Below are positions 6,672 through 29,881 of a DNA stretch of 64,000 nucleotides, piece by piece. Position 1 is the stretch's first letter, and each line of letters starts with the position of its first letter. Made by a program: the position numbers and the translations under genes. Source of the stretch: an uncultured Shimia sp. (lineage in GTDB: Bacteria > Pseudomonadota > Alphaproteobacteria > Rhodobacterales > Rhodobacteraceae); contig NZ_CANLRL010000007.1 in the NCBI RefSeq assembly GCF_947493595.1, positions 62,001 to 126,000 of the forward strand. The letters are read 5' to 3'. The notes beneath the pieces were generated by a model. That model did no database searches. It was not told the origin of the DNA and worked only from the letters and a program-made list of their open reading frames with translations.

Positions 6672-7124
6672 TTACACGGAAGTCAAAGATATGCCGCCTG
6701 GGCCAACATTGATCAGGACACCCTGATTGCCGGACGGAGCGTTGATTTTTGTGCGTACAGTTTTGCCCGCTGGGTCACGGAAGCCGCCGGTCACGCCAAT
6801 CACAGAAGCACCTGGCTGGATCGCGATCACTTTCTCCCCTGACCCACCTGGGGCGAGGGTGATCTGATCGGTGCGAAGAAGTTCAGGGCCAAGTGCGGCA
6901 GCGGGGTTTTGCAAGGCAAAAGCGTCTGCGCTGTCAAAATTGCCGGAACTCGACATTTGCAAGATTGAAATGGTGACTGGGCGATCGCTGCCATCCGGGC
7001 CTGGGTTCATTCCGGTTTGGGCTTGCGCCGCAACCGTGAGGGTGGTGGTGCCGCCGCCCATGCAGGTTGTCAGAACAAGTCCGGCAGAGCCGGTGATCAG
7101 AAAATTGCGTCTTGAAAAAGTCAT
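6672..7124 (-). CDS. tssJ: T6SS outer-membrane lipoprotein TssJ
   Basis: About 150 residues. From the ATG at 7124 (preceded by GGGAG eight bases upstream, with the fha stop one base away) the protein begins MTFSRRNFLITG, then a hydrophobic stretch and a cysteine at about residue 21 (LVLTTC). The rest fits the TssJ beta-sandwich that binds the TssM periplasmic tip. An upstream in-frame ATG at 7148 would overlap fha and is less likely. SRRNFL matches a twin-arginine (Tat) export motif, and LTTC is a loose lipobox, so both route and lipidation need testing. Identity rests on moderate similarity plus its place between fha and tssK. Confidence 0.8.
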   Translation of the reverse strand: MTFSRRNFLITGSAGLVLTTCMGGGTTTLTVAAQAQTGMNPGPDGSDRPVTISILQMSSSGNFDSADAFALQNPAAALGPELLRTDQITLAPGGSGEKVIAIQPGASVIGVTGGFRDPAGKTVRTKINAPSGNQGVLINVGPGGISLTSV

Positions 7125-7125
7125 G

Positions 7126-8646
7126 TCACGATCTCCCTTGATTTTCATATGCGTCTCTGAAATCTGCGCCGACTTCGCCGAGGAACCGCTCTTCCGCGGC
7201 GCGGGCTATTTCGCCGTAACGTTCTACGTAAAGCTGCCACATCTTTGCGCTTGAACCGCCGGCGAGCAGCTTCTCCATCAAGCCAGCGTCTTGCATCTCG
7301 CGTTCGATTGCATCGGGGTCAAAGCTGTCGATCATGCGGCGTAGGGCGGTTTGTAGCGCTGCCCATGTGCGCACCTGATGGTCGTTCAAATCGCGAAAAG
7401 CCCAGTTCACGGCGTCTTCGGGCGCAAGATATCCTTCCCCGCGTGGCTGAAGAAGGGCCGACAGCCCGTCATCAGTTGTGGCCAGAAATTTCAATGGGTT
7501 CACGTTTGCACTAGCAATGATGGTTTGGGCCACGCGCACGCGGTTTTTTTCCTCGGCACGTGTGCGTAAGAGGGCCATAACGCCCTCGACCAGCACGCGT
7601 AGGCAGCGCCCGATGCGTTCCATTTCTTCCTCGCTGGCCTCGGGGGACAATTGTGTCGATGACAAACCCATGCCGCGAAAAAAGGCTGCGCGCAGGGCTG
7701 CGTCATTGCCTGAGGATGCAAGTGCTGCCTGTGCCGATGTGGAGGAAGTTTCAGGGCTTTCTGATGAGGCGGGCTGGGCCTTTTCGGTATCGAGAGCATG
7801 GGCCGGTGGCGACGGTTGCGCCGAGCCCGGGTCCGTTATGGGCGGCGATCCTTGAGAAACTGTGTTTCCTCTGAGCCCAAATGGGTCGCTTGACGATGTC
7901 GCCTGAGGCGAGCGCGCCTCGGTGCTTTTGTGAGCCTCGCCGCGGGTACGGCTTCGATTACTGCCAGCGGATTCTACTGGCTGCCAAAAATCGTTCTCTG
8001 CGGCGGCGTTGGGTTCGGTGACTGGTGTATCGCTGAAGTAGTTGCCAAATCCCCCGTTTTTGCTTTCCTCTTCTTTTGGTTCTTGGGGAGTTGCCCGTGG
8101 GGCACCACGCAGATCAAGGTCAAATGGATCGTCTTGATCTAGTGGTCGAGGTGGACGAGGCTCTTCTTGATCTTGACCTGTGTCGCGGGTGTCTTCGCGC
8201 AGTCCAAACGGGTCAGGTAAACTGTCCGGTCGTTCTTTGGGTGCGGGCGCGACCTCTTCTGAGCCAAATTCGAAGGAAAACACGCCTGCGCCGGAGCGAT
8301 TGGGCGAACGTTGGCTCAGGCTGTTCCGTACCGTCATCTCTTCGATGCGTAGCACAAAATCGCCCAATCTCAGGCGCATGCCTGCATCGATAGGCACTGA
8401 ATTTCCGGCGCCCACGGGATTGGCAGCATTGTCTATGTATAGCCCGCCTGATGACGCGTCTGTCACCATGATACGTCCACGTTCTTCGGTGACAATGGCA
8501 TGGCTGCGTGAGACAAATTTGTCGGGATCATCAATTTGCCAATCGGCGTCCGCACCGCGACCAATCACTAGGCGGCCCCCTCCAAATTCTTTTTCGGAGA
8601 CCACCTGGGGATGGGGGGCGTTTTCCAGAACAAACCTGAGAGTCAT
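7126..8646 (-). CDS. fha: T6SS FHA-domain protein (Fha/TagH)
   Basis: 506 residues. The N-terminal ~95 residues are a forkhead-associated (phosphothreonine-binding) domain with GRGADADWQI, SRSHA and GGLYID-like turns. A long polar, Pro/Glu-rich linker follows, containing two DPFGL copies and a DPFDL. The C-terminal ~190 residues match the T6SS-specific FHA C-terminal domain (FFRGMGL, then ALLRTRAEEKNRVR). Fha proteins act in the PpkA threonine-phosphorylation switch that starts T6SS assembly. The start at 8646 gives an ATGA overlap with the tssG stop and has GGAG nine bases upstream; the longer in-frame start at 8661 is less likely. Confidence 0.93.
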   Translation of the reverse strand: MTLRFVLENAPHPQVVSEKEFGGGRLVIGRGADADWQIDDPDKFVSRSHAIVTEERGRIMVTDASSGGLYIDNAANPVGAGNSVPIDAGMRLRLGDFVLRIEEMTVRNSLSQRSPNRSGAGVFSFEFGSEEVAPAPKERPDSLPDPFGLREDTRDTGQDQEEPRPPRPLDQDDPFDLDLRGAPRATPQEPKEEESKNGGFGNYFSDTPVTEPNAAAENDFWQPVESAGSNRSRTRGEAHKSTEARSPQATSSSDPFGLRGNTVSQGSPPITDPGSAQPSPPAHALDTEKAQPASSESPETSSTSAQAALASSGNDAALRAAFFRGMGLSSTQLSPEASEEEMERIGRCLRVLVEGVMALLRTRAEEKNRVRVAQTIIASANVNPLKFLATTDDGLSALLQPRGEGYLAPEDAVNWAFRDLNDHQVRTWAALQTALRRMIDSFDPDAIEREMQDAGLMEKLLAGGSSAKMWQLYVERYGEIARAAEERFLGEVGADFRDAYENQGRS

Positions 8647-9710
8647 CCGGCCAATCTCCATGACGTGTTGTTGGCAGGGGCAGGCCGGCCTGCAAGATCA
8701 CTAAATGCAAGATCTTCGGCGCCTTTTGTGGGATCCGGTGCAAGCCAGCTGGTGCGGCCGAGCTCGCTGTGCCCTAATTGGGCGGCAGGTACTTCGCCGG
8801 CGGCTAGTACAAGCCGCAACGAAAAAACAGTTTCACGTCCCGCCGCAAACAGAACTGCGTGATGTAGGCGTTCCCAAGTTACCCTACTTTCTAGAAACCG
8901 GTTGAATTGTTCTTGCGTGAGTGGGCCAAGACGGATTTCCGCTTGATCCGCCCGATCAAAGAAACGCGTGCCCATAACTGCGGCCGTTCCAAGAGCTGCA
9001 TGAGCCTGACCCAACCGCGACTGTAAATGTGTCGGGATATCGACCCAACGACCGGTGAATTCCTCCAACGTAACGCGCACACCCACAACTGTTTCCAGAA
9101 AAGCGGTGAGCCTTTCCGGGCTTCGAGCTTGAAGCGCAAGCGAGGTGGCATGGCGCAATTTTGCGCCTTCAAGGTGGTGATCGGAGCTGACAGTGCCGGG
9201 TAAGCCTTGACCCGCGAGCGAACGCATCAGAGCCGTAACCCGACCTCCATCACCAAATGCCACATGAATGTCGGCGCGGGCATCCGCCCAGGCGCGCCAG
9301 TACAAAGCGATTACCCGATGCTGCAGCATATTGATGAAATCAAGAAAGGCCTTGTCCGCAGAAGCGCCTTCCCCTTCGCCAGCAAACCACCGGTTGGACA
9401 TGCGGGCCATGATCCAGCGGGTTAGATGCAGAGGCATGGGACCTTCAGGTCCAATCAAGCCAAGCACATTACTATCGATCCGGATTGGTGTGCTTTCCGA
9501 TCCAGGGGTGAGCGCTTCAACATCACTGGCGGCAAAATTCATGCGTGGGAGTTGTCCGAGACGTGCGGGCTCTTTGGATGCGTCACCTGCGCGTCCGAAC
9601 CGTGTCGTCTCAGTTTCGAGTTGCCGCAACAATTCGAAAAAATCCATCCTTCCTATGCTGTCTGCGAGCGCGTTTAAATCAGCGCGCGTGTGCCTGGCGT
9701 CATCGGCCAT
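8643..9710 (-). CDS. tssG: T6SS baseplate protein TssG
   Basis: 355 residues, the TssG size. It has the N-terminal FFELLRQLE motif, then FLDFINMLQHR followed by LYWRAW, and a PLTQEQFNRF-like segment typical of this family. TssG pairs with two TssF copies to form the baseplate wedge. The ATG at 9710 has GGAGG just upstream and lies within the end of tssF (37-base overlap); it ends in an ATGA overlap with fha, so coupling is likely on both sides. Confidence 0.93.
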   Translation of the reverse strand: MADDARHTRADLNALADSIGRMDFFELLRQLETETTRFGRAGDASKEPARLGQLPRMNFAASDVEALTPGSESTPIRIDSNVLGLIGPEGPMPLHLTRWIMARMSNRWFAGEGEGASADKAFLDFINMLQHRVIALYWRAWADARADIHVAFGDGGRVTALMRSLAGQGLPGTVSSDHHLEGAKLRHATSLALQARSPERLTAFLETVVGVRVTLEEFTGRWVDIPTHLQSRLGQAHAALGTAAVMGTRFFDRADQAEIRLGPLTQEQFNRFLESRVTWERLHHAVLFAAGRETVFSLRLVLAAGEVPAAQLGHSELGRTSWLAPDPTKGAEDLAFSDLAGRPAPANNTSWRLAG

Positions 9711-14889: not shown

Positions 14890-16026
14890 CTACTTTTTGC
14901 GTTGGTCTTCGACCCCCGCGATATTTCGAAATTCTTTAAGACCTGACGGCGCGATTTCTTCGATGAGTTCTAAAAAGTCCATCGCCACCATACGGCGCAT
15001 TCGCCGGGCCAGGTGCGGGATGGGGCTGGACGGTTCTGTACGTTCATAAAACGCAACAATCTGATCCAACGCGGTTTCGACGTCTTCGCGGGAATTGACT
15101 GGACCGGTGCCGCTCGCACCATTGAGCTGGGTAGTCGGGTTGGCAATTTGGGATTGGGCGGGGGCATCGGTGACTGCGCCACTTTCAACGGGTGACGCGT
15201 TTTTGCTGACAACTTCAATCGCGCTTTCAAGCGTGGTTTTGATCTGTGCCAAATACTCGCTAACTTCCGCAAGACTCAGGCCCGTGCCATCTGAAATAGT
15301 GGACGTCTCGGCAAACTTTGTCTCAAGAGCTGCTGTTGCTGTTTCACAGGCAAGGATGTCATTCACCATCTGTGCTGCGGCTGCCGCATCCTGGTCCGCA
15401 AACAGGCGAGCCGCTGCGTTGACCCGATTGACCAGTTCTTCATGCTTGGCAGAAAGCGTGTCTTTTTCGGATTGGCTAAGGCCCGCAGCGGCACGGCTGA
15501 GCATGTCATAATTGTTCAGCGATGCCTTTGCCAACTGATCGCCTGTAATGGCACCAATGCCGCGTGGATTGAGCACGACATCAAATTTCAGATCTCCTAG
15601 GAGGCCGTTGTCATCGTTTTCAAGCTGGCGTAGGGCATTGACACGGGGCAGGGTGGCCATTCTTGGATCGTCGCGGTCCCGCAATGCCGGATGCAGTGTG
15701 CCCCAATGCTGATCCAATGTGTCGGTGAGCAGACCAAGCCCGGTGCTCAGGCCCGCAAAGCCATCCAAAGCATAAAGCGTACGCACAACGATAACGAGCA
15801 GGCGCAAGTCTCGTCCTTTTTGGGCGAGCGCGGAAGCGTCCGATGCAACAACTGCCCAATCAACATCCGGTGTCTTTGGATTGATTGATCCGTCGTCGTT
15901 TAGGCGATGTTCACGTCCGGCGGGTTGCACCATGCGCTCAAGAGAGTGAAATTCACTTTCATTTCTGAGTTCAATACCGGACGGAGAGTCCCCCTCTAGA
16001 GGTTTGAGGAGGCTGGAAATATCCAT
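14890..16026 (-). CDS. tssA: T6SS assembly protein TssA (ImpA family)
   Basis: 378 residues. The ImpA N-terminal domain is at the start (PLEGDSPSGIELRNESEFHSL) and the C-terminus carries the short-form ending with ERTEPSSPIPHLARRM followed by FLELIEEI. TssA organises baseplate docking and sheath priming. It is the first gene of the structural operon, with GGAG upstream of the ATG. About 124 bases separate it from the TonB-like gene upstream, leaving room for a promoter, though none was recognised. Confidence 0.93.
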   Translation of the reverse strand: MDISSLLKPLEGDSPSGIELRNESEFHSLERMVQPAGREHRLNDDGSINPKTPDVDWAVVASDASALAQKGRDLRLLVIVVRTLYALDGFAGLSTGLGLLTDTLDQHWGTLHPALRDRDDPRMATLPRVNALRQLENDDNGLLGDLKFDVVLNPRGIGAITGDQLAKASLNNYDMLSRAAAGLSQSEKDTLSAKHEELVNRVNAAARLFADQDAAAAAQMVNDILACETATAALETKFAETSTISDGTGLSLAEVSEYLAQIKTTLESAIEVVSKNASPVESGAVTDAPAQSQIANPTTQLNGASGTGPVNSREDVETALDQIVAFYERTEPSSPIPHLARRMRRMVAMDFLELIEEIAPSGLKEFRNIAGVEDQRKK

Positions 16027-16150: not shown

Positions 16151-17530
16151 TCAATTTTGACGTGTAGCCACAAAGAGGTAGGCCCATTCTCCGCGGAAAT
16201 TTTCACGGGTGTTACGAACCAGCGAAATCTGGTCTTGGAGGAAAGCCAAATAGGCTTCGGCTGGTTCAATAAAGGGCCGGAAACCGTCATAAAGTGGATG
16301 GCTGGCAGCATAGGCCACAGCGATGTCTTGGCCAAAAGGCGCAGCGATTTCCAGAACCAGAGCTGGTGGAGCACCGGTCACCGGATCAGGTCGTCCAATT
16401 GAAAAGAGGGTGGCAGGCTCATACGCCTTGAGAGGACGCTGTGTGCTTGGCACCAAATGGATCACGTCCCCGTTGGCGTCGAAGTAGTCAAGGTAGACAA
16501 AGGCGGGGTAGTCCGGTGCCTCCAGGTCCAGGATCAAGCGCTGGCCCGCAACAAAGTTGTAAGTCTGCACTTGTGAGCTCGCCCCCACCAGCATCGGATC
16601 GGTGAACTGCTCCTCGGATTGTGGCAGATCCAATTGGTCCAGAGATGTCAAGATGGCGCACTGTGGCGGGGGCAAAATGAGCAATTGATCCTTCAGCGGC
16701 AGGCTGTCGCCAAGTTGATCTGAAAGTGCGGCTAAAAGGGGCGCGCGTTGTGCTTCGTCGCGGAGGTGGCCTCGAATTGCCAACGAGCCGGTAGCCGGAT
16801 CAAAGGCGGTTTGCACCCGTGCGCAACTCGGCGCCTTAAGTGCTGCCGCAAGTGAGTCCCGCATATTTTGACCTGTGGAAGAGGCCGGCTGTAGAAATGC
16901 CGCGATAGTCTCCAGACTTGCAGGATCAAAAGCGGTCGCGCCACTCCAGTCAAAGGCGGCAGCAACACGCTTGGATGCGGGCGGTTTTGCAAATGACTGG
17001 CGCCTGGCAGGTGCCGTCGTAGGGATGATGTTTGACGTAAGATCTATTGCGGTCTGATTGCGGGCTGCCAATGGCGAAGACGCGATAGACGGCTTGTTTG
17101 GCTCCGCAATTGGGACAACGCGCGCCTCCGGCGAGAGCGCGGATTGTAGTGTGTGGACTATTGCTCGCGACGCTTGCGTGGTTGGAGTGACTTTGACTTC
17201 TGTCAGTTTCACGGTTGGGCTTGCCGTGCTTTTTACAATGGATGGCGGTTGTGGCGTTTTGGCTGCGGTCTGCGCAGTGTGTACCGCCTCGCGTGCGGAT
17301 AGAGATGGTCCGTAGTCCGCAAGTTTCTTATCTGATCGTAGTCGTCGCGCATCTGGCGATGTAGCGCTGGCTTCGGATTGAGGTACCAGCATGGCTGCAA
17401 GGCTCAGGCTGCTGTTGGGTACAGTTTGCTGCGGGACTTGAGTGGGCGCGACAAGCATCACGCCTAAGGTGGCAGCGCCACCGTGCACTATCAGCGAGCT
17501 CAATGCTGCAAAGATCATGCGAGCGGTCAT
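16151..17530 (-). CDS. TonB-like envelope protein with BON-like and DUF4384-like periplasmic domains
   Basis: 459 residues. One N-terminal membrane segment (about 5-27) is followed by a long Pro/Ala/Thr-rich stretch to about 190, as in TonB or TolA spacers. A compact region at about 218-300 looks BON-like (SLAIRGHLRDEAQR, then a conserved CAIL at 291), and the last ~140 residues look DUF4384-like (FVAGQRLILDLEAPD, VIHLVPS, then LEIAAPFG). There is no classical TonB C-terminal domain. It is the last cistron of an ExbB-ExbD-ExbD module, joined by an ATGA overlap. I infer that proton-motive energy is passed to a periplasmic partner; the partner is unknown. Domain names are by eye. Confidence 0.6.
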   Translation of the reverse strand: MTARMIFAALSSLIVHGGAATLGVMLVAPTQVPQQTVPNSSLSLAAMLVPQSEASATSPDARRLRSDKKLADYGPSLSAREAVHTAQTAAKTPQPPSIVKSTASPTVKLTEVKVTPTTQASRAIVHTLQSALSPEARVVPIAEPNKPSIASSPLAARNQTAIDLTSNIIPTTAPARRQSFAKPPASKRVAAAFDWSGATAFDPASLETIAAFLQPASSTGQNMRDSLAAALKAPSCARVQTAFDPATGSLAIRGHLRDEAQRAPLLAALSDQLGDSLPLKDQLLILPPPQCAILTSLDQLDLPQSEEQFTDPMLVGASSQVQTYNFVAGQRLILDLEAPDYPAFVYLDYFDANGDVIHLVPSTQRPLKAYEPATLFSIGRPDPVTGAPPALVLEIAAPFGQDIAVAYAASHPLYDGFRPFIEPAEAYLAFLQDQISLVRNTRENFRGEWAYLFVATRQN

Positions 17531-17958
17531 GGCGTCACGACCAGAACCACCTCACCGAGCGCAGCGGCTTGCAGAGCCTCAGTTATTGGCAGGACAAAAC
17601 GCAAAGGCGTGGTGCGGTGCGCATTCACACGCAGGAGTGTCGCTTGGTCGCGCTGGGCTACTAGCATTGTTTGCTCCAACCAAGCCCTTGAGTCATACAC
17701 TGTGCCGTTGACCGCAATTTCGCCGCCTTGAGCAATGCTGATTGTGACCCCACCGCCCGGCATGTCGCGCCCTGAATTGGCGTTGGGCGGGATGACTTCA
17801 AAGGGCGCAGAAGCATCCAAACGCGCCACCAGCATGAAAAAAACGAGTAGAAAAAACACAACGTCAATCAAGGCTATGGTGGGCTCAGATGCGGCGCGGC
17901 GTTGTGGCCGTCGCAGGCCGGCGGGTTGGGGCTTTGCTGAGCTTAGAGGGCGAGTCAC
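17527..17958 (-). CDS. ExbD/TolR-family protein (second copy)
   Basis: 143 residues. An Arg-rich cytoplasmic start is followed by one membrane segment TIALIDVVFFLLVFFML that keeps the Asp essential for proton use in ExbD/TolR, then a periplasmic domain of about 95 residues. ExbD dimers sit in an ExbB pentamer and convert proton flow into motion of a TonB-type partner. Start and stop overlap its neighbours by ATGA on both sides. It differs clearly from the other ExbD at 17955, so the motor may be heteromeric. Confidence 0.85.
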   Translation of the reverse strand: MTRPLSSAKPQPAGLRRPQRRAASEPTIALIDVVFFLLVFFMLVARLDASAPFEVIPPNANSGRDMPGGGVTISIAQGGEIAVNGTVYDSRAWLEQTMLVAQRDQATLLRVNAHRTTPLRFVLPITEALQAAALGEVVLVVTP

Positions 17959-18377
17959 GGCGAGCCCTCAATGCGAATGATACGCGTGTTTGTTAAGCCG
18001 ACCGAGGCCAAGGCGTCCAGGACTTCGGTCAACGCAAATAGCGGCGCAGCGCCTGACGGCAGGATTAGGATTTGTGGTGGTGGCACTCTTGCGGCTAGAG
18101 GGAGGATTGCTGCGGCCAAGTTGCCTTCGCTAAGCCGCTGGCCACGCAGGCTCACGGTGCCATCGCTGCTGATCCGAAGAAGAACGCGCGTGACGTCACC
18201 TATTGCCCCAGTTTGTGTGTCTGTCGCTGGGAGATCAACTTTTTGTGACACGGGGATCATGTCGAGATCGAGGTAGACTGAAGTCACCATGAAGTAGACC
18301 AACAGGATAAACAGCACATCAATCAACGGCACCAAAGAGATGCGTCCGGACGTGCGCTGTGGGCGAGACAAGGTCAT
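17955..18377 (-). CDS. ExbD/TolR-family protein (first copy)
   Basis: 140 residues. The single membrane segment LVPLIDVLFILLVYFMV carries the conserved Asp of the ExbD/TolR family, and the periplasmic part ends in a typical ALTEVLDALASVGLTN helix. Its gene overlaps exbB-like and the second exbD-like gene by four bases each. Presence of two ExbDs with one ExbB is known from some multi-component Exb/Tol systems; the role in a T6SS island is inference. Confidence 0.87.
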   Translation of the reverse strand: MTLSRPQRTSGRISLVPLIDVLFILLVYFMVTSVYLDLDMIPVSQKVDLPATDTQTGAIGDVTRVLLRISSDGTVSLRGQRLSEGNLAAAILPLAARVPPPQILILPSGAAPLFALTEVLDALASVGLTNTRIIRIEGSP

Positions 18378-19009
18378 TGCGGGTGCACTGGAGAAGACGT
18401 TGGATCAGGCTTTTGACTGGGCACCAAGCGTACCCCTGCCAGAATGGTCTCAATTTCTTGCGTTTCGGCTTCGGCCCGTGCGGTGAGCCAAGCGGCCTCT
18501 GCAAGCGCTGGAATGGCGACAACCAGCCCGGCGGCGGTGGTTAAGAGCGCTTGCCAAATGCCGCCTGCGAGAATGGATGCGTTTGCCGCGCCTTCCGCAA
18601 GCTCCAGTGAGCGAAAGGACTGGATCATCCCAAGCACCGTGCCCAATAGGCCAAGCAGGGGCGCAATCATGCTAATCAATTCCAAAGTGCGAATTCCGCT
18701 AAAAAGGCGTGTGACGTCTCGTTGTGCTAATGGGTGCAGCGCATCCGCCACAAAGAGTCCTTTTTGTCCGAGGTGCAGGCGTTCGGCGGCGGCTTTGGCG
18801 ATGTTATCTGCTGCGCTGTGACTGGTCGGCGGTGTTTCAATGGAGCCTTTTTCCAATGCGCGTAGCCAGCCGGAACGTGCCTCGGTTCCCTTGGTGCGCA
18901 CGCCCAGTTTCAACAAGCGTGCCAGAAAAATCGCAACCGATAGCACCGATAACATTCCCAGCAACAAGAGCACGGGCAAGGCGGTACCAAGATCAGATAA
19001 CGCTCTCAT
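18374..19009 (-). CDS. ExbB/TolQ/MotA-family proton channel protein
   Basis: About 211 residues from the ATG at 19009, which overlaps the stop of the upstream gene (ATGA); the longer in-frame reading from 19090 would lie inside that gene. Membrane segments are near the N-terminus (ALPVLLLLGMLSVLSVAIFLA), around LISMIAPLLGLLGTVLGMI, and in ALLTTAAGLVVAIPALA, the last being the hallmark of ExbB/TolQ. It should form the stator ring around the two ExbD proteins. The context (T6SS island, no TonB receptor) suggests a special rather than a siderophore role. Confidence 0.88.
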   Translation of the reverse strand: MRALSDLGTALPVLLLLGMLSVLSVAIFLARLLKLGVRTKGTEARSGWLRALEKGSIETPPTSHSAADNIAKAAAERLHLGQKGLFVADALHPLAQRDVTRLFSGIRTLELISMIAPLLGLLGTVLGMIQSFRSLELAEGAANASILAGGIWQALLTTAAGLVVAIPALAEAAWLTARAEAETQEIETILAGVRLVPSQKPDPTSSPVHPQ

Positions 19010-19437
19010 TTGATCAACGGCACCGCGGCCCGGCTTGAAAGTGTGATCAAGGGGTAGCAATCGCGGGGTTCTGCGTTTTGTGGCGTGCATGCGGGTATGT
19101 CATGCAGTAACAATTCGCCAATCTGGGGGCAGGCGATGTCCGGGAATTCGAACAGTTTGAGAGATGTACGGGCCACCGGAGTAGGGGCGGCGTCTACGGT
19201 CAGCAACTGGTTGATAATCCCGTTGGTGTCCAAAATGGCAAAGGACAGTTCCAACGCCTCAAAGCTCATGCCGGAGTCGTTGCGAAATAAAAAGAAAGCC
19301 TGACATGTGGCTTCGCCAGCTTCCAACTTGTTGAGTTCCACATAAAGTTGAGCAGCCGTCTGTTCCTGCGCCTGTAGTGGCGGTGTTTGTGTGAAGGAAA
19401 ACAGTAAAACAAGTGCCTGAAAAAGGGTCTTTCGCAA
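19006..19437 (-). CDS. Small exported protein with four cysteines, function unknown
   Basis: 143 residues. A signal peptide is clear (MRKTLFQALVLLFSFTQ up to PLQA). The mature part has four Cys (in ATCQ, DIACP, PACT and RDCY), suggesting two disulfides in a small beta-rich domain. I do not recognise the family. It is the first cistron of the Exb module and overlaps exbB-like by ATGA, so a periplasmic partner of that motor is the natural guess. GGAGC lies upstream of the ATG. Confidence 0.7.
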   Translation of the reverse strand: MRKTLFQALVLLFSFTQTPPLQAQEQTAAQLYVELNKLEAGEATCQAFFLFRNDSGMSFEALELSFAILDTNGIINQLLTVDAAPTPVARTSLKLFEFPDIACPQIGELLLHDIPACTPQNAEPRDCYPLITLSSRAAVPLIK

Positions 19438-20131: not shown

Positions 20132-20487
20132 TGGCGGTGCCGGTTCTGATAGATATCGTGCGCCAACATGCTGAAGAGGCGGCGCATCTGTGGGTGACCT
20201 ATGACTGGCACCTTCTGAACCCAGACGAAAACCCCGATATGGACGAAGAGCGGTTGGATCGGCTAATCGAGCGGCTGGAGGCGCATTTGGATGCGATGCG
20301 GGTTGCCGGAAAACACGGGCTAAAAATTGCGCAGGAGCGGTATGAGGAGTTCCCTGAGGCGGGAGAGCTGTTTTTGTTACGCATGTTGCAACCCGAAGCG
20401 GCCAGCTTGCGTGTGCGCGAGCTGGATTTGGTTGCGGTGAGGGAATTTCTAGCGACGAAGCTGGAAAGTTACGCGACGCCAACCTGA
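20131..20487 (+). CDS. Short TIGR02270-like protein, probably a truncated form
   Basis: 118 residues. The N-terminal ~75 residues (IVRQHAEEAAHLW, LDRLIERLEAHLDAMRVAGKHG) match the start of TIGR02270-family proteins, T6SS-linked HEAT-like proteins that normally run to about 400 residues. Here the frame stops after KLESYATPT, and the last 19 bases overlap the convergent gene at 20469. Either the HEAT part has been lost by a deletion joined to the neighbouring effector locus, or this is a genuine short version. Start couples to the DUF6484 gene by TGATG. Family assignment by eye. Confidence 0.6.
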   Translation: MAVPVLIDIVRQHAEEAAHLWVTYDWHLLNPDENPDMDEERLDRLIERLEAHLDAMRVAGKHGLKIAQERYEEFPEAGELFLLRMLQPEAASLRVRELDLVAVREFLATKLESYATPT

Positions 20488-21374
20488 TTGATACGGGTCC
20501 ATTCCTCACCATCGAACGTCAGAACGTCCTTGTCACCAAGACTCCACATTTTCTTTGTGCCACGACCGAGGTTGTAAAACGAGCTTGCAAGGGCCATCGG
20601 CTCGAGCACAGGGGTCAGTCCCTCTTCGTCGTTCCAAGTCATTAAGGCGCGCATCATGGCGCAATAAATCTCTCCTTGAAACTCCACGATCCCCCAGATG
20701 TCTTGCAACGGCACCGGGGGGGTAGACACCAAAAACTCGTCGCGCCGTCCTTTGGCGACAATTCCGGTCATTCCACCAGCATAAACAAAACCATCAGTTG
20801 CGCAGTGCAGGCAGGTGAACGCCAGGTTAGTGGCGCATTGGACAGGTGCCCAAATCTCGCCATTGAACCACCAGACAACGCCATCCCGTCCAGCCGCATA
20901 CATCTCGGTTTTGGAAAATCCATCGATGGCTTCAAGATGGTTTTGTGGGAACTCCTTTTGCAGCACGGCGTCCGGACCGAACTCGGTCCAACTGCCATCT
21001 TCACTTCTACGATATGCAGCGAGGTTGCCACCGCAAGCAACCACGACGTTGTCGATTTCTGCCACACTGCGAACTGGGTTTTCAGTGCCGTTGATTTCCT
21101 CCAATGGACCCACCGTTCCCCCCTCAAAAACCACGGCTTCTCCGTAGTGCCCAATTGCGACAACCCGCTTTCCATCGCGTGCCCAAGTAAGGTCGGAGAC
21201 TTCAAAGTCCACAAAAGATAATTCCGACCCCAGTTCGGGTGTCAGATTGTAGATAGCCGCGTGCGGGTCCTCGAATTGATAGGCAAAATCATCCATGATC
21301 AAGGCCATGCACGCCAAATCGTCGCTTTGCACCGCTGCGCGCGTTAAGGACATTTTGTTAAAGAAAGGCCGCAT
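20469..21374 (-). CDS. Beta-propeller-like protein, candidate immunity protein of the effector upstream
   Basis: 301 residues without signal peptide or membrane segment. It shows repeated short beta motifs (LTWARDGKRVVAIG, VVACGGNLAAYRR, MYAAGRDGVVWWFNGE, FVYAGGMTGIVAKG, KMWSLGDKDVLTFDGE), which is the pattern of a WD40/Kelch-like propeller. It begins 17 bases after the stop of the toxin gene and is co-directional, the usual place for an immunity gene. I do not recognise a named family. That it neutralises the GHH toxin is inference from position only. Confidence 0.6.
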   Translation of the reverse strand: MRPFFNKMSLTRAAVQSDDLACMALIMDDFAYQFEDPHAAIYNLTPELGSELSFVDFEVSDLTWARDGKRVVAIGHYGEAVVFEGGTVGPLEEINGTENPVRSVAEIDNVVVACGGNLAAYRRSEDGSWTEFGPDAVLQKEFPQNHLEAIDGFSKTEMYAAGRDGVVWWFNGEIWAPVQCATNLAFTCLHCATDGFVYAGGMTGIVAKGRRDEFLVSTPPVPLQDIWGIVEFQGEIYCAMMRALMTWNDEEGLTPVLEPMALASSFYNLGRGTKKMWSLGDKDVLTFDGEEWTRINQVGVA

Positions 21375-21391: not shown

Positions 21392-22684
21392 TTATGAGCC
21401 GCGCAACATCTGGGCTCTCTCTCTTGTGTAGGCCATGGCCGCGCTCTCAACTTTGCTACTTTTGCCACACCGCTCTCCTCTGAGCTGGCGTGACGGCGGC
21501 ATGCCTAAAGCGTCGCAATGGTAGGAATCTAACTGCGCCTGCAAACAGGCGGGGGAACAATCGGAGAGGGGGAAAACAACGTCCATTGAGCGGATTGCCT
21601 CGTCGCGCATGTCCTCATAAGAGCAGGTCTCCATTTCCTGAATTTGGATCGTTTTCCGACCCGGGGATTGGGCGGTGATGACCCCAACGCTGTTGGAACT
21701 GGAATTCGCAGAGACAAACGCGCTCATTTCCGTATGCATCATACCGTGCGATCCAGTTGTGTTTGAACACCCTTCCGCACACACACAGGGTGCATCGGCT
21801 GCTGCGTATGGTGGCGCGGATTTTCCCGGTGGCCAATCTGGATTTGCCAAGCGACTGAAGATGCTCAGCGGTTTTTCATCCGGCTTTGGGTTCTCTCCTC
21901 GACCTTTGTTGTAAAACGCAGAGGCTGGCACCATGTGATGACCGGTCTGCCCTGGGCAAGGGCAATTGTTGGTGCCGGAGCCGCCGTAGGGAGGCAGTTG
22001 GCATGCCAAAGCGGCCAAACAGTCATTCTTCTGGGCTTTGTTTGAAATTTCAATGACATCCGCATTGTCTTTGAAGTCGCCGTCGGCGGTCGAAATTGTT
22101 GTGTTGTAGCCATCGCGGGTGCCAATTTCCTTGGCCCGTTCGCCCACCTTCTTGTCCAAACCCGTACTTTTGCAGACTTCGTCTGTTGTCTTGCCATCGC
22201 AGGCTTCTGCAATTTTTCGTTTTTCGCTTTCGCAGGGATCAGGACTTCCCGGCACATGAGGTTGTCCGATTTTTGGCCAGGGCGGCGTGTTGGGGGGCGA
22301 GCCATGGTTGTCCGTTTGAATGTCTGAAAAGCGAGTGACGTTCTTCCCCTCGGCCTTCACGTTCATTGAGTAGGCTTGAGAGTAGGCTTTGCCTGTGTTC
22401 TTGGAACTAATCACGCCTTTTTTGGCAGCGCAGCCGGCCTCATCCCCGGTGGTCTTGCTGAAGTATGAGGAGTTTTTTTGATTGACAGTTTTGCCGCCAA
22501 TTTTGACCGATCCAGTGCCTTTGTCTGTGTCTCCATCTGATCCGAAATTTGGATAGGGAACCGGCACGCCGGGTGGGGTGGCCGGGTTTTCCGGAGGGGT
22601 CATGCAAACGTCGGGAAAGGAGGCAATGACCTTGTTGGCCTGCGCCTTGCAGCTGACTTCCAAACTATTGGCAAAGACGGTCAT
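21392..22684 (-). CDS. T6SS effector: PAAR-like DUF4150 domain fused to GHH nuclease-like toxin domain
   Basis: 430 residues. Residues 1 to about 125 fit DUF4150, a PAAR-like spike tip (VFANSLEVSC, PPGVPVPYPNFG, GSVKIGGKTV, then MNVKAEGKNVTRF). A Pro-rich hinge follows (about 130-150). The C-terminal part has GHHMVPASAF at 248-257 and SHGMMH at 312-317, the pattern of HNH/EndoVII-fold toxins with a GHH signature, predicted DNases. The second half is unusually rich in Cys. Start and stop context: ATGA overlap with the ketosynthase-like gene upstream, 17 bases to the putative immunity gene. Cargo of DUF2169-type adaptors is often of this kind. Confidence 0.85.
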   Translation of the reverse strand: MTVFANSLEVSCKAQANKVIASFPDVCMTPPENPATPPGVPVPYPNFGSDGDTDKGTGSVKIGGKTVNQKNSSYFSKTTGDEAGCAAKKGVISSKNTGKAYSQAYSMNVKAEGKNVTRFSDIQTDNHGSPPNTPPWPKIGQPHVPGSPDPCESEKRKIAEACDGKTTDEVCKSTGLDKKVGERAKEIGTRDGYNTTISTADGDFKDNADVIEISNKAQKNDCLAALACQLPPYGGSGTNNCPCPGQTGHHMVPASAFYNKGRGENPKPDEKPLSIFSRLANPDWPPGKSAPPYAAADAPCVCAEGCSNTTGSHGMMHTEMSAFVSANSSSNSVGVITAQSPGRKTIQIQEMETCSYEDMRDEAIRSMDVVFPLSDCSPACLQAQLDSYHCDALGMPPSRQLRGERCGKSSKVESAAMAYTRERAQMLRGS

Positions 22685-23760
22685 GCCGCCTTCCTCCGGC
22701 GGCTGTCATTGCGGTTTGGTGTTTGAAAGATTGCGGTGCCGCAGGCGCCATCATCACCCGATCCTTCGATCATTATGCGATGGCCGTCAGCATAGTCTTT
22801 TTCATATGCTTCCAGCCCCCAGGCCGCCATCAAAGGCACAAACGCCGCTCCAATATTGCCAAGACAATCTGCAGGGCTCCAAATTGGCTGCGGATCGCGG
22901 TGTAGGCGCATGGTGCGCTGCATCGCCAGCGCGCTTTGTTTGAAGAAAAAATGTTCGCCAGAGACATCAGACAGGCGGAAATCTATTCGGCCGAAATCCT
23001 GCAAAGACGACATCTCCAACGCATCGCGATAGGCTTGTGTCATGCCATCCGCGCGCAAAGGCAAATCCAGTCCGTCTTCGTCCAATTCATTGTAGAGAAA
23101 GGCCTTCTCTCGAGTAAGGCCTAGCCCGGTCAGGGCGAAATGTGTGGCGTTACCAGCGGTGCAGAGGATGGCGGCTGCGGCTTCTCCCGGGATAAATCCA
23201 TTGGCGTTTTCTGCCGTCAATAGGCGGTTCTTGCGCAAATAATGCGCAACCGTTGGCCCAGTCAGCAGCGTGTCGGCACCGACAATCAGGACATATTCAG
23301 TCGCACCGTTGCGCAGCACTCGTCTCGCGCGTTCCAGTGCAACAAAGCCGGATGGTCGCCCGTGGGTGACCACTTGGCATTTGGTTTGGGGAGAAAGGCC
23401 TGCGTATTTCAAAACCTTCTGAGCGAAACTCTCAGAGGCACGCACCGGGCGACCGGGGCGCTCACTTTCCGCAAGGCAAAAGATCACCTCTATGTCGGCT
23501 TTGCTGGCAGCATGCTGCGCCAATGCATCGACAACAGCGCCAGCAGCCAGATGGGCGAGGCGCTTTTCTCCAATCCAGTTTTTGGGCAGCGGCACCGGTG
23601 CCCCCACCAACCAATCGCCGCCGGGCACGACAAATTGCGTTTCCGCAAAGCCATCTATGGCACCACGTAAGGCTGCCGCGGACGCCGCGCGGTTTAGTCC
23701 AACGGCCGTAACCATGCCCGCGGAAAGGATGTTGAGGCCAAGGCCTTTGAGCACCGTCAT
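22681..23760 (-). CDS. Ketosynthase/thiolase-fold protein lacking active-site residues, effector-locus accessory
   Basis: 359 residues. The fold is that of beta-ketoacyl synthases: an N-terminal GMVTAVGLN, a central VLIVGADTLLTGP, and GFIPGEAAAAIL (about 189-199). All three catalytic positions seem lost: the nucleophile region reads THGRPSGFVAL (132-142) with no Cys, the first His region reads SDVSGEHFF, and the second His (GH) reads GN in CLGNIGAAF. It sits between the DUF2169 adaptor and the PAAR-like effector, with ATGA overlaps to both. Thiolase-like genes are known beside DUF2169 effector loci; a chaperone or scaffold role is inference. Confidence 0.75.
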   Translation of the reverse strand: MTVLKGLGLNILSAGMVTAVGLNRAASAAALRGAIDGFAETQFVVPGGDWLVGAPVPLPKNWIGEKRLAHLAAGAVVDALAQHAASKADIEVIFCLAESERPGRPVRASESFAQKVLKYAGLSPQTKCQVVTHGRPSGFVALERARRVLRNGATEYVLIVGADTLLTGPTVAHYLRKNRLLTAENANGFIPGEAAAAILCTAGNATHFALTGLGLTREKAFLYNELDEDGLDLPLRADGMTQAYRDALEMSSLQDFGRIDFRLSDVSGEHFFFKQSALAMQRTMRLHRDPQPIWSPADCLGNIGAAFVPLMAAWGLEAYEKDYADGHRIMIEGSGDDGACGTAIFQTPNRNDSRRRKAA

Positions 23761-24896
23761 GACGGGGCCTCCGCAACTGACACCGCAGGGGGAGGCGTGT
23801 CGCCCGGCAAGCGGAAGCGGCCGCCACGTGGGTGATAAGCCTTACCTTGTCGTTTTGCGCGCTCCAGGCCCTTGGCTGGGGTGCCAATCCAGGCCTCGGT
23901 GATTTCGGTGATGATGCGCTTCATCGGCACGTTCACGCGCCAAACCATCGACATACGCCGCGCCTCAGTGTCAAACAGGAGCGTGTCTGGCCGAACAATG
24001 CCAGAAAAGGCCTCCTCCCACTCACGAAACAAACGCACAGGGAGGTCAGTTTGCGGCAGATGAAATTGCTCGCGACCTTTGGGGGTGAGGTTGAGAGTGG
24101 TGACCGGGGTGCCAGTGGCCGGTTGCGTTATCTGCTGATCTTTGCCAACCTGCTGATAGTATCGCTCGTCAAAATCGTGCGGTAGAAACGGGAAAACCTC
24201 GTCCTGCCACTTCTGGTCGTAGGTGCCTGCCCATTTCAGCCGATCAGCGCGGGCTCGGGAAATCGGCCCAAGTGCCATGGGCTGGTATTCTTCATAAGGC
24301 GACGTGACTTCAACGCCGGGCTCTTCTGTCAGGGGCAGGGGCGTGCCGCTGAGGCGATCTTGATTGCGGGGAGTGGCATAACCGCGGCCTACGGGATTGG
24401 TGGCGTAGGAATGCGGATTATCCACCTCAGGGTCGAGCCGATCCGTGCCGCCAAATGCAACATCGTAGGAAAAAGGCAAACGGGTAAACGGATAGGGATC
24501 TGTGGCCATGATAGCCGGGCCGACTACCCGCCATTCACGATGCCCCACCACCATCAGGGTTTTGTGCCAATCCCCAACACGAATGCCAACTTGCACCCGT
24601 TCGGCTTTCTGCCCGTTTGGAGCATAAGCGGCCCCTTGAACCACCACATCGCAGTTTGGTTTTCGGAAGGCAAAATCGGTTTCCCAAAGAGTGGCGGAAT
24701 AACCGGGCTCTCCGGTGTGTTGATCCGCCAACATCAGCGGTGTTTGCTCTGTCTCGGGCAGCGGACGCATTGGGGTGCCGGGTGTGTCTGGAAACGCCCA
24801 AGTGCCTTTAATCACCAAAGAGAAATATTCGCGTCCGGCCACATCCATGCCCATGGTGTGCTGGTGTAAATAGCCGTGACGGTTGTAGACCTTCAT
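23757..24896 (-). CDS. DUF2169 T6SS effector adaptor
   Basis: 379 residues. Family marks are REYFSLVIKGTW near the start, MVVGHREWRVVG, PFSYDVAFGGTD, NPVGRGY and the C-terminal RRMSMVWRVNVP. DUF2169 proteins load PAAR/DUF4150 effectors onto VgrG; the best-known case is Atu3641 with Tde2 in Agrobacterium. It follows clpV by 18 bases, with AGGAG before the ATG, and overlaps the ketosynthase-like gene by ATGA, so adaptor, accessory protein and effector are made together. Confidence 0.88.
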   Translation of the reverse strand: MKVYNRHGYLHQHTMGMDVAGREYFSLVIKGTWAFPDTPGTPMRPLPETEQTPLMLADQHTGEPGYSATLWETDFAFRKPNCDVVVQGAAYAPNGQKAERVQVGIRVGDWHKTLMVVGHREWRVVGPAIMATDPYPFTRLPFSYDVAFGGTDRLDPEVDNPHSYATNPVGRGYATPRNQDRLSGTPLPLTEEPGVEVTSPYEEYQPMALGPISRARADRLKWAGTYDQKWQDEVFPFLPHDFDERYYQQVGKDQQITQPATGTPVTTLNLTPKGREQFHLPQTDLPVRLFREWEEAFSGIVRPDTLLFDTEARRMSMVWRVNVPMKRIITEITEAWIGTPAKGLERAKRQGKAYHPRGGRFRLPGDTPPPAVSVAEAPS

Positions 24897-27799: not shown

Positions 27800-29881
27800 A
27801 TGAAGACGCCGCTGCCCACGGATATCTTTAAAGTTGGCCAGGTATTGAACAACACCTATGAAATTCAGGGTGTTCTGGGACGTGGTGGAACCGGAGAGGT
27901 GTATCTGGCATGCAATCAGATCAACAGCCGGGAGGTAGCGATCAAGGCGTTAAACGCGCAGTTCTCAGGCAATGACGATTATGTCGAGTTGATGAAGCGC
28001 GAAGACCAAATGCGTTCGATTCGACATGACGCTGTGGTGCGATACATCGAAGTTTCCAAGTCAGATGACGGGCACGTTTTTCTGGTGATGGACTATATTG
28101 AGGGGCCTTCTCTCAACAATATCCTGACCGAGAAACGCATGTCTGCACGCGATTTGCTTATTGTCGCGCATCGCGTTCTGGAAGGGTTGGAAGCCACCCA
28201 TGCCGAAGGCATTATCCATCGCGACCTGTCTCCGGATAACATCATTTTGGCCAATGGTTCGCCGGAGAAGGCCACAATAATCGACTTTGGGATCGCCAAA
28301 GACACTGCTACGGGCGCACGCACAATTGTGGGAAACGAATTTGCCGGAAAATATGAATACGCAGCGCCTGAACAGTTGGAAGGCCGCGTTGAATTTCAGA
28401 CCGATATCTACGGTTTGGGGGCAACGCTACTTGCCGTGTGGCGAGGTGTTGTGCCGGACTTGGGCGCGATGCCCGCTGAGATTGTCCGTCGCAAAGCGAA
28501 CCGGTTGAACACAGAGGGTGTGCCTGATCCTCTGAAAGAATTGATAGATTGGACAACCAATCCTGCCATTGAAGAGCGTCCCGCAAACGCGACAACCGCG
28601 ATCTCATGGCTTGATGGGAAGTTGCGCCCAAACCAACGGGAGGAGACCCCAGCCAGGATCCAGAAGTCGCGGTGGAGGCAAATTGCCTTAATGGCAGTTT
28701 GCGGAGTAGGGGCAGGGGGTGTTTGGCTCTGGAATTTTGATGTTCTTACACCCAAATTGCCAACTGCAAGCCCGTATGAATTTCTTGCCGTTCACGGCCC
28801 GGATGGTAACGCCGTGATGAAATCTCATGTGCCAGATAATGCCGCTGGAGATCTTCTAAAAGGGGCGTTTCGCGATGCCACAGGGCGTGTGCCGGCTGAC
28901 GACAACGTGACGCTGGCGCAAGGCGTGCCATCTTTGCAATGGGTTTCTGAGGCGGCTGCGCTTATGAAAACCGCGTCTGACCTTGATGAGTGGCGTGTCT
29001 CTCTTACAGACCTTTCCGCAACGGTGACAGGCATTGCCCCAAGCAGCCGCACAAGGGCAGAAATTGCCAGTGCTTTTGCGGCCCAGGCGCACACCTCCAA
29101 CATGTCGATTGAAACCGATCTGGTGGCTGGTCCGGTTTTACTGGCTGCACAAGCTTTGACACCAGACCTGGCAGACTTGGCGACTTGCGGCGCGCTTTCA
29201 TTGACGCGTGAGAAAGGAGCCGTTTTTGCGCTTTATGAGGATGTCACGATTGTGGGAGACGTCGCCAAGGTTGGAGATGCCATGTCGATCCAATCTCATT
29301 TTGAACCTGTGATTGGCGATAGGCAGCTTAAGGTCGAAACCCGAGTCCTAAATGACGATTTGTGCGCCATTCGTGCCGTCCTTCCGCAGATTGCGGCGCA
29401 AACGGTTTCAGTGCGGCTTGGGCACGGGACCTCGGGCGAAGATTCCCTGACCGGGGTATTTACAACTGGAGATAATCCGGTTGTCGACATTCAGATGCCG
29501 GAAAGTATCGTTGGCGCCTCTCTTTGGGTGATGGTTGTGGACAACACCGGCAAGGTTTTTCACGTCCTGCCAAATGTCTACGACACCGAAAATCAGGTTG
29601 ATGCCTTGGGGCAAGTGGTCGCTGGTATTCGGCAAATACGGGTGCTTTGGCCAGTTTCAGCTCTCTCTCAGGATCCAAGAAAACTCGCAATTGAAGTGAC
29701 GAAAGGAGACTATGGAAAATCTGAAGTCATTGCCATTCTATCGAAGTCTCCGCTGTTTGAAATCAGACGTCCAACTGAGGAGAGCGTGGCATCTGTGGCG
29801 GCGGCTCTTGAGGAGTTGATGGTGCATCGGGCAGAGGACATTCTGGGCGTCGCAACTCGTATTATTGATGCGCGTCCTTGA
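27800..29881 (+). CDS. ppkA: Transmembrane Ser/Thr protein kinase, PpkA type
   Basis: 693 residues. A full kinase domain is present: Gly loop GRGGTG (27-32), Lys49, catalytic HRDLSPDN (140-147), DFG (162-164) and APE (189-191). A membrane segment lies at about 293-312. The periplasmic half has BON-like units (one with LCAI at 521-524) and a DUF4384-like C-terminus (about 555-693). In other species PpkA triggers T6SS assembly by phosphorylating Fha or TssL. The ectodomain closely resembles that of the TonB-like protein at 16151. GGAGC precedes the ATG. No cognate PppA phosphatase is visible here. Confidence 0.88.
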   Translation: MKTPLPTDIFKVGQVLNNTYEIQGVLGRGGTGEVYLACNQINSREVAIKALNAQFSGNDDYVELMKREDQMRSIRHDAVVRYIEVSKSDDGHVFLVMDYIEGPSLNNILTEKRMSARDLLIVAHRVLEGLEATHAEGIIHRDLSPDNIILANGSPEKATIIDFGIAKDTATGARTIVGNEFAGKYEYAAPEQLEGRVEFQTDIYGLGATLLAVWRGVVPDLGAMPAEIVRRKANRLNTEGVPDPLKELIDWTTNPAIEERPANATTAISWLDGKLRPNQREETPARIQKSRWRQIALMAVCGVGAGGVWLWNFDVLTPKLPTASPYEFLAVHGPDGNAVMKSHVPDNAAGDLLKGAFRDATGRVPADDNVTLAQGVPSLQWVSEAAALMKTASDLDEWRVSLTDLSATVTGIAPSSRTRAEIASAFAAQAHTSNMSIETDLVAGPVLLAAQALTPDLADLATCGALSLTREKGAVFALYEDVTIVGDVAKVGDAMSIQSHFEPVIGDRQLKVETRVLNDDLCAIRAVLPQIAAQTVSVRLGHGTSGEDSLTGVFTTGDNPVVDIQMPESIVGASLWVMVVDNTGKVFHVLPNVYDTENQVDALGQVVAGIRQIRVLWPVSALSQDPRKLAIEVTKGDYGKSEVIAILSKSPLFEIRRPTEESVASVAAALEELMVHRAEDILGVATRIIDARP

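What the first reader, a model, noticed from the sequence alone, without database searches (positions are those of the whole stretch)
16151..19437. Five-gene ExbB-ExbD-ExbD-TonB-like motor inside a T6SS island, joined by four ATGA overlaps
A Cys-rich exported protein, one ExbB, two ExbDs that both keep the proton-relay Asp, and a TonB-like protein that ends in a DUF4384-like domain instead of a TonB domain form a single overlapping chain next to tssA. Exb/Tol motors are not standard T6SS parts. An energised envelope module could open the cell wall or outer membrane for the T6SS, or drive a sensor for it.
Basis: partly seen in the sequence, partly recalled or inferred. Interest (0 to 1): 0.72.

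Follow-up and report, generated by a model that had tools for sequence, protein, structure and literature searches.

The report
Proton motor tied to roseobacter T6SS
A five-gene proton-driven envelope motor, relative of the TonB iron-uptake energiser but with a different working end, travels with the type VI secretion 'harpoon' in marine roseobacter bacteria and may power or sense something for it.

Summary
Five genes, CysP-ExbB-ExbD-ExbD-TonB-like, lie at 16151-19437 (-), joined by three ATGA and one GTGA overlaps, next to tssA. The T6SS link is not chance: of 195 Rhodobacterales genomes, 43 of 55 with T6SS and 0 of 140 without carry the TonB-like arm (two T6SS-less genomes have only a stand-alone secreted relative of its head). 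The gene order holds in 93 of 101 loci; the other 8 end at contig edges. A sister version sits in a third T6SS type. An iron-type operon of this genome has the same order but a true TonB. In the T6SS versions that end is replaced by another head, of the same class as the outer part of the T6SS kinase, type for type. Best reading: a T6SS-dedicated proton motor whose arm shares a periplasmic target with the kinase. The motor also correlates with absence of TssJ, confounded by ancestry. It is accessory: 12 T6SS genomes lack it. No experiment exists.

The parts
19006..19437 (-). CysP: exported small protein, four invariant Cys, all-beta fold; first gene of the module
   Evidence: Cys invariant in 21 of 21 rows; model mean pLDDT 87.9; a homologue heads the iron-type operon of the same genome (29% identity, E 2e-16)
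18374..19009 (-). ExbB/TolQ-like channel subunit
   Evidence: PF01618 E 1.4e-27; ATGA overlap with CysP
17955..18377 (-). ExbD1 with TM Asp (D20)
   Evidence: Asp in 93 of 93 loci
17527..17958 (-). ExbD2 with TM Asp (D32); Asn at this place in 20 of 21 iron-type paralogues (one not readable)
16151..17530 (-). TonB-like arm: TonB-type TM with S12-x3-H16, long linker, new C-terminal head
   Evidence: S-x3-H in 87 of 92 loci
16154..16975 (-). Head of the TonB-like protein (alpha/beta BON-like part plus DUF4384/Ig-like part), in place of a TonB C-terminal domain; the BON label rests on a weak match (E 0.044)
   Evidence: (model mean pLDDT 88.8)
14890..16026 (-). tssA, next gene downstream, same strand
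27800..29881 (+). T6SS Ser/Thr kinase (PpkA-like) whose outer part is of the same head class
7126..8661 (-). FHA protein TagH, likely kinase substrate (inferred)
6672..7148 (-). tssJ, present in this T6SS type

Best explanation
A T6SS-dedicated proton-motive-force motor. Inferred mechanism: an ExbB pentamer surrounds a dimer axle made of the two different ExbDs; proton flow past their Asp residues moves the axle. The TonB-like protein, anchored by a TonB-type TM, is the arm; its long linker carries a BON-like/Ig-like head through the periplasm. The head is of the same class as the outer domain of the T6SS Ser/Thr kinase, so arm and kinase most likely act on the same periplasmic target (the T6SS membrane complex or an envelope-state signal), the motor adding energy to sensing or siting of T6SS assembly. 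CysP is an exported helper shared with the iron-type version of the operon. Shown: gene content, conserved order, residues, co-occurrence, head classes that follow T6SS type in arm and kinase. Inferred: complex formation, proton use, target, effect on T6SS.
For: 43 of 55 T6SS+ vs 0 of 140 T6SS- genomes carry an arm of the A/B or C kind (Fisher 1.3e-32, not corrected for ancestry). A/B arms: in 17 of 18 other genomes within 6 kb of tssC on one contig; in the 18th (G123) head and CysP lie at the ends of two contigs. C arms: 21 of 26 lie within 18 kb of a tssM or tssC hit. Copies away from tss genes still co-occur with T6SS: Aliiruegeria (none within 10 kb; TssM in the genome), Qingshengfaniella (type B TssC on another plasmid), four genomes of one genus with the arm over 1 Mb from TssM. 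Motor residues kept: Asp in both ExbDs 93 of 93; S-x3-H 87 of 92. ExbB groups follow T6SS type. Head class and kinase class follow T6SS type together: A/B profile hits 7 of 8 A/B kinases and 0 of 10 C kinases; C profile hits 10 of 10 C and 0 of 8 A/B. In ten of ten T6SS-linked C clusters inspected, arm and kinase genes are convergent neighbours. In Acidovorax, PpkA is reported to interact with TssJ, TssM and TssL (PMC12607579, passages).
Against: 12 of 55 T6SS genomes lack it; sister type A clusters differ (G067 has it, G115 does not, TssC of both 93% to the window), so T6SS can presumably work without it. The kinase with the same head exists without the motor: 5 of the 8 A/B kinases come from motor-less clusters, so head class follows T6SS type rather than the motor itself. 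The head class also occurs with no motor: a secreted protein in two T6SS-less same-genus genomes, kinases and a papain-like peptidase in other orders. The A/B and C heads are not shown to be homologous (hhalign E 0.064, probability 0.86%). No complex was modelled and no experiment exists.
Confidence: 0.46

Rival explanations
1. The motor takes the place of TssJ: in T6SSs without the outer-membrane lipoprotein the TonB-like arm links the TssLM complex to the outer envelope.
For: TssJ (TIGR03352) found in 12 of 195 genomes; PF12790 in 0 of the other 43 T6SS genomes. An arm is present in 39 of 43 TssJ-less vs 4 of 12 TssJ-bearing T6SS genomes, p 1.5e-4; type B alone p 7e-4, counting the C arms of G072 and G168. 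A published survey also found roseobacter T6SS1 clusters without tssJ (PMC9515649, section 12 read).
Against: Type A clusters with the motor, this window included, have both. The pattern rests on few evolutionary events, so p overstates. Three genomes lack both (G034, G166, G191), and G148 keeps only CysP. The models may miss a diverged TssJ.
Confidence: 0.22
2. The motor drives local peptidoglycan or outer-membrane remodelling so that the T6SS can pass, together with the caspase-like, OmpA-like and (type C) M23 peptidase genes nearby.
For: A caspase or OmpA-family hit lies on the fetched stretch in 59 of 80 named loci (counted); a type C cluster carries an M23-domain protein, with homologues in two more; a head protein co-occurs with OmpA and caspase genes without T6SS.
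Against: No catalytic domain was found in the module; T6SSs without the motor exist.
Confidence: 0.15
3. An accessory transport energiser (uptake of an unknown ligand) that merely rides on the same mobile islands.
For: Paralogous to an iron-type operon; many copies lie on plasmids.
Against: No TonB C-terminal domain; no TonB-dependent receptor named at the four loci annotated (that gene table is incomplete); 0 of 140 without T6SS; copies away from tss genes also co-occur with T6SS.
Confidence: 0.1

Closest known systems
CysP-ExbB-ExbD-ExbD-TonB iron-type operon of the same genome (contig C8, L038)
   Same: Same five-gene order; homologous CysP (29%, E 2e-16), ExbB, two ExbDs
   Different: Its last gene ends in TonB_2/TonB_C; ExbD2 has Asn in 20 of 21 such operons, one not readable; a TonB-dependent receptor and a periplasmic binding protein gene lie near (the iron role is inferred); its ExbB falls in a separate group
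Xanthomonas tonB-exbB-exbD1-exbD2
   Same: One ExbB, two tandem ExbDs, TonB; exbD2 not needed for iron uptake (PMC3551730, passages)
   Different: Has a TonB; a T6SS link was not looked for; no sequence comparison made here
Myxococcus AglRQS gliding motor
   Same: One MotA/ExbB-type subunit plus two different MotB/ExbD-type subunits with a TM Asp (PMC9389320, passages)
   Different: Powers gliding; no sequence comparison made here
TagQRST-PpkA damage sensing of P. aeruginosa H1-T6SS
   Same: Trans-envelope module coupled to a T6SS kinase and FHA protein (PMC11881912, passages)
   Different: TagT/TagS are described as an inner-membrane ATPase; no TagQRST name appears among the cluster genes listed; here a proton motor would be the energised part (inference)

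Membership tests
ExbB-ExbD energiser family | MotA/TolQ/ExbB channel subunit | tested here: met
   PF01618 E 1.4e-27, over cut-off
ExbB-ExbD energiser family | ExbD with TM Asp | tested here: met
   PF02472 over cut-off twice; Asp in both ExbDs in 93 of 93 loci
ExbB-ExbD energiser family | Proton-driven 5:2 complex | not testable with these tools
   Needs complex prediction or biochemistry
TonB protein | TonB-type TM with S-x3-H (motif recalled) | tested here: met
   87 of 92 loci; the other 5 have Asn for His
TonB protein | TonB C-terminal domain | tested here: not met
   No TonB_C/TonB_2 match up to E 0.1, whereas the two iron-type paralogues match
T6SS accessory component | Occurs with T6SS and not without | tested here: met
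   43 of 55 vs 0 of 140 genomes
T6SS accessory component | Needed for T6SS activity | not testable with these tools
   Needs a deletion mutant
T6SS core component | Present in all clusters of the type | tested here: not met
   4 of 8 type A and 17 of 22 type B genomes have an arm
TagQRST-like sensor module | Acts on the T6SS kinase | tested here: inconclusive
   Head classes of arm and kinase follow T6SS type together; no interaction tested

The most novel reading that the evidence does not exclude
Most roseobacter T6SSs have a proton-powered membrane complex: an ExbB-ExbD-ExbD' motor swings a TonB-like arm that stands in for TssJ and for TagQRST, so that assembly of the harpoon is energised and sited from the inner membrane by the proton motive force.
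Probability: 0.2. Interest if true: 0.9.

Novelty: new variant of a known kind. Interest (0 to 1): 0.73.

Why it matters
T6SS is thought to be powered by sheath contraction and ClpV recycling; I know of no proton motor as a part of it (background knowledge; see the searches named under Tried and rejected). A dedicated motor kept with three T6SS types in one large marine lineage would add an energy input at the envelope. It would also give a testable account of how T6SSs without TssJ or TagQRST reach and sense the outer membrane. That arm head and kinase head are of one class makes the question directly testable.

Tried and rejected
Chance adjacency: rejected by co-occurrence and by copies away from tss genes.

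Rows dropped before the counts: one search also gave weak matches (E 1e-6 to 3e-4) in G063, G092, G108 and G152, and in G092 and G108 (E 2e-14), G152 and G168; one search shows those in G152 and G063 to be the kinase and those in G092 and G108 (no T6SS) a stand-alone secreted protein without Exb genes. I did not count them as arms.

'Only A/B T6SSs have it': my first reading; overturned when an iron-type CysP search hit T6SS clusters of a third type, shown to be full modules.

Orphan modules: of 80 named loci, 11 showed no tss gene on the fetched stretch; 10 of the 11 genomes could be searched and all 10 have TssM; L081 was not held. Qingshengfaniella has a type B TssC on another plasmid.

Fold searches: the head gave only generic Ig-like matches; CysP's best match was IrmA, E 4.5e-4. 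Neither names a function. A profile search of the head in the PDB gave the YscD periplasmic part, E 6.7e-4; CysP gave nothing.

hhalign of A/B against C heads was not significant, so I do not claim that they are homologous.

Origin: in the ExbB tree (72 rows, a selection) A, C and iron-type are each one group, and A/B stand apart from iron plus C (99/99). In it L026 (G127) was labelled type B by mistake; it is type A. The root is a midpoint and TolQ is on a very long branch, so I do not claim which version came first.

Literature: in the listings (30 of 93 papers shown; 25 of 46; 15 of 17; 12 of 23; 10 of 19; 10 of 17; 10 of 48) I saw no title or abstract start that describes an Exb motor in T6SS; two searches found no paper. 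ExbB is not mentioned in PMC9515649 (term search of the text; section 12 read), PMC4337385 (term search) or PMC11556119 (whole text read). The library holds open-licence papers only.

Class-level search (385 genomes) gave 11 non-own genomes with weak matches; four inspected by Pfam were three kinases and a papain-like peptidase, not TonB-like; the other seven were not inspected.

On re-checking I lowered the best explanation from 0.50 to 0.46 and the novel case from 0.22 to 0.20, because 5 of the 8 A/B kinases come from motor-less clusters.
Full report
Observation. The window holds a T6SS island. At 16151-19437 on the - strand five genes follow each other: CysP, ExbB, ExbD1, ExbD2 and a TonB-like protein, with 4-nt overlaps (three ATGA, one GTGA) at the four junctions. 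Pfam confirms ExbB and both ExbDs; the last protein matches DUF4384 just below the curated cut-off and no TonB domain; CysP matches nothing. tssA lies 125 bp downstream.

Conservation. Searches of 195 Rhodobacterales genomes found the TonB-like head strongly (E below 1e-59) in this genome and 18 others; weaker matches in four to five further genomes were dropped as kinases or as a secreted protein (see Tried and rejected). TssM marks 55 of the 195 as T6SS-bearing and includes all 19; TssC marks the same number. In 17 of the 18 the arm lies within 6 kb of tssC; in G123 the head is at one contig's start and CysP at another's, 1.8 kb from tssC. Named relatives give 80 loci, the best of 149 relatives found. 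In 101 loci (17, 4; 92 distinct heads) the five-gene order holds in 93; the other 8 lie within 175 nt of a contig end. The ExbD1 and ExbD2 genes end in ATGA, GTGA or TTGA in 92 of 93 loci each; CysP and ExbB do so in only 19 and 23 of 93.

T6SS types. By TssC identity to the window I call type A 87-100% (8 genomes), type B 56-60% (22) and others at most 52% (25 genomes with only those). The A/B arm is in 4 of 8 A and 15 of 22 B genomes and in none of the 25.

A third type. A search with the iron-type CysP (61 genomes) hit ten T6SS clusters of the other types. All ten show CysP-ExbB-ExbD-ExbD-TonB-like, with a TonB-type TM and a different head. That C head is in 26 of 195 genomes, all T6SS-bearing: 21 lie within 18 kb of a tssM or tssC hit, four (one genus) lie over 1 Mb from TssM, and one (G072) is on a contig without a tssM or tssC hit. 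Two genomes (G036, G185) have both kinds. Together 43 of 55 T6SS genomes and 0 of 140 others have an arm (Fisher p 1.3e-32; not corrected for ancestry). Without: G032, G034, G039, G041, G063, G065, G115, G130, G148, G152, G166, G191. For the 11 A/B genomes without the A/B arm I read 11-17 kb at tssA and found no Exb genes there; two of them (G072, G168) have the C version elsewhere. In G148 only CysP is left beside the kinase.

Anatomy. CysP has four invariant Cys (21 of 21 rows) and an all-beta model (pLDDT 87.9). The arm has S-x3-H in its TM in 87 of 92 loci, as in TonB (recalled: Ser16/His20 of E. coli TonB). The head model (pLDDT 88.8) has an alpha/beta part, called BON-like on weak matches, and a beta-sandwich part; fold searches give only generic Ig-like matches. 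Both ExbDs carry Asp in A/B modules (93 of 93); ExbD2 has Asn in 8 of 8 C modules read and in 20 of 21 iron-type operons, the 21st not readable. So a two-Asp axle marks the A/B motor.

Iron-type paralogue. On contig C8 of this genome the same gene order ends in a true TonB and lies near a TonB-dependent receptor and a periplasmic binding protein gene. A second ExbB-ExbD-ExbD-TonB set lies about 13 kb away. Double ExbDs are therefore ordinary here; what is new is the exchanged head and the T6SS partnership. In the ExbB tree A, C and iron-type are each one group, with A/B apart from the rest.

The kinase link. The T6SS Ser/Thr kinase (27800-29881) has a weak DUF4384 match in its outer part (E 0.0019). 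Among 18 cluster kinases that I had in hand, the A/B head profile hit 7 of 8 A/B kinases and none of 10 C kinases, the C head profile 10 of 10 C and none of 8 A/B. Five of the eight A/B kinases come from clusters without the motor, so the class follows T6SS type whether or not the motor is there. In ten of ten T6SS-linked C clusters inspected, kinase and arm genes are convergent neighbours. In Acidovorax citrulli PpkA is reported to interact with TssJ, TssM and TssL (PMC12607579, passages); in P. aeruginosa outer-membrane damage is read by TagQRST-PpkA (PMC11881912, passages). From this I infer that arm and kinase read or act on the same periplasmic target.

TssJ. TIGR03352 finds TssJ in 12 of 195 genomes (all 8 type A, 4 type B) and PF12790 in 0 of the other 43 T6SS genomes. 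An arm is in 39 of 43 TssJ-less and 4 of 12 TssJ-bearing T6SS genomes (p 1.5e-4). A TssA+TssB tree of 28 of the 30 A/B genomes shows that few events underlie this, so it is a lead only. A published survey noted missing tssJ in roseobacter T6SS1 clusters (PMC9515649, section 12).

Verdict. A real, conserved, T6SS-dedicated accessory motor of a known family with an exchanged output end. Its function is untested. I put the sensing/siting reading first (0.46 for the statement as a whole) and the TssJ substitute second (0.22).

Noticed in passing
21392-22684 (-), with 20469-21374 (-): PAAR-like protein with a GHH2 nuclease-toxin domain, a likely T6SS effector; the adjacent 301-aa gene without a Pfam match may be its immunity protein (inference).
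   Followed up: no
22681-23760 and 23757-24896 (-): Ketoacyl-synthase-like gene and DUF2169 gene in the effector operon, also seen in other type A clusters.
   Followed up: partly
G000:C7:57475-59457, outside the window (L040 7014-9470): A second, shorter TssM-like (IcmF) protein of 818 aa, beside a PP2C phosphatase and an M15 peptidase gene.
   Followed up: no
L155 6334-9544, L156 6011-9359: In two T6SS-less genomes of the same genus a secreted DUF4384 protein sits with an OmpA-family gene and a caspase gene; in L155 the caspase protein has a peptidoglycan-binding domain.
   Followed up: partly
L217 2536-2985 (G148): A lone CysP beside the T6SS kinase, with no motor genes found next to it: a likely remnant.
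   Followed up: partly
L038 8912-11935 and L039 6934-9938: Two iron-type ExbB-ExbD-ExbD-TonB sets in this genome, both with Asn instead of Asp in the second ExbD.
   Followed up: partly
31517-33139 (+), L040 2153-4495: Caspase-family genes recur in and around roseobacter T6SS islands; their role is unknown.
   Followed up: no
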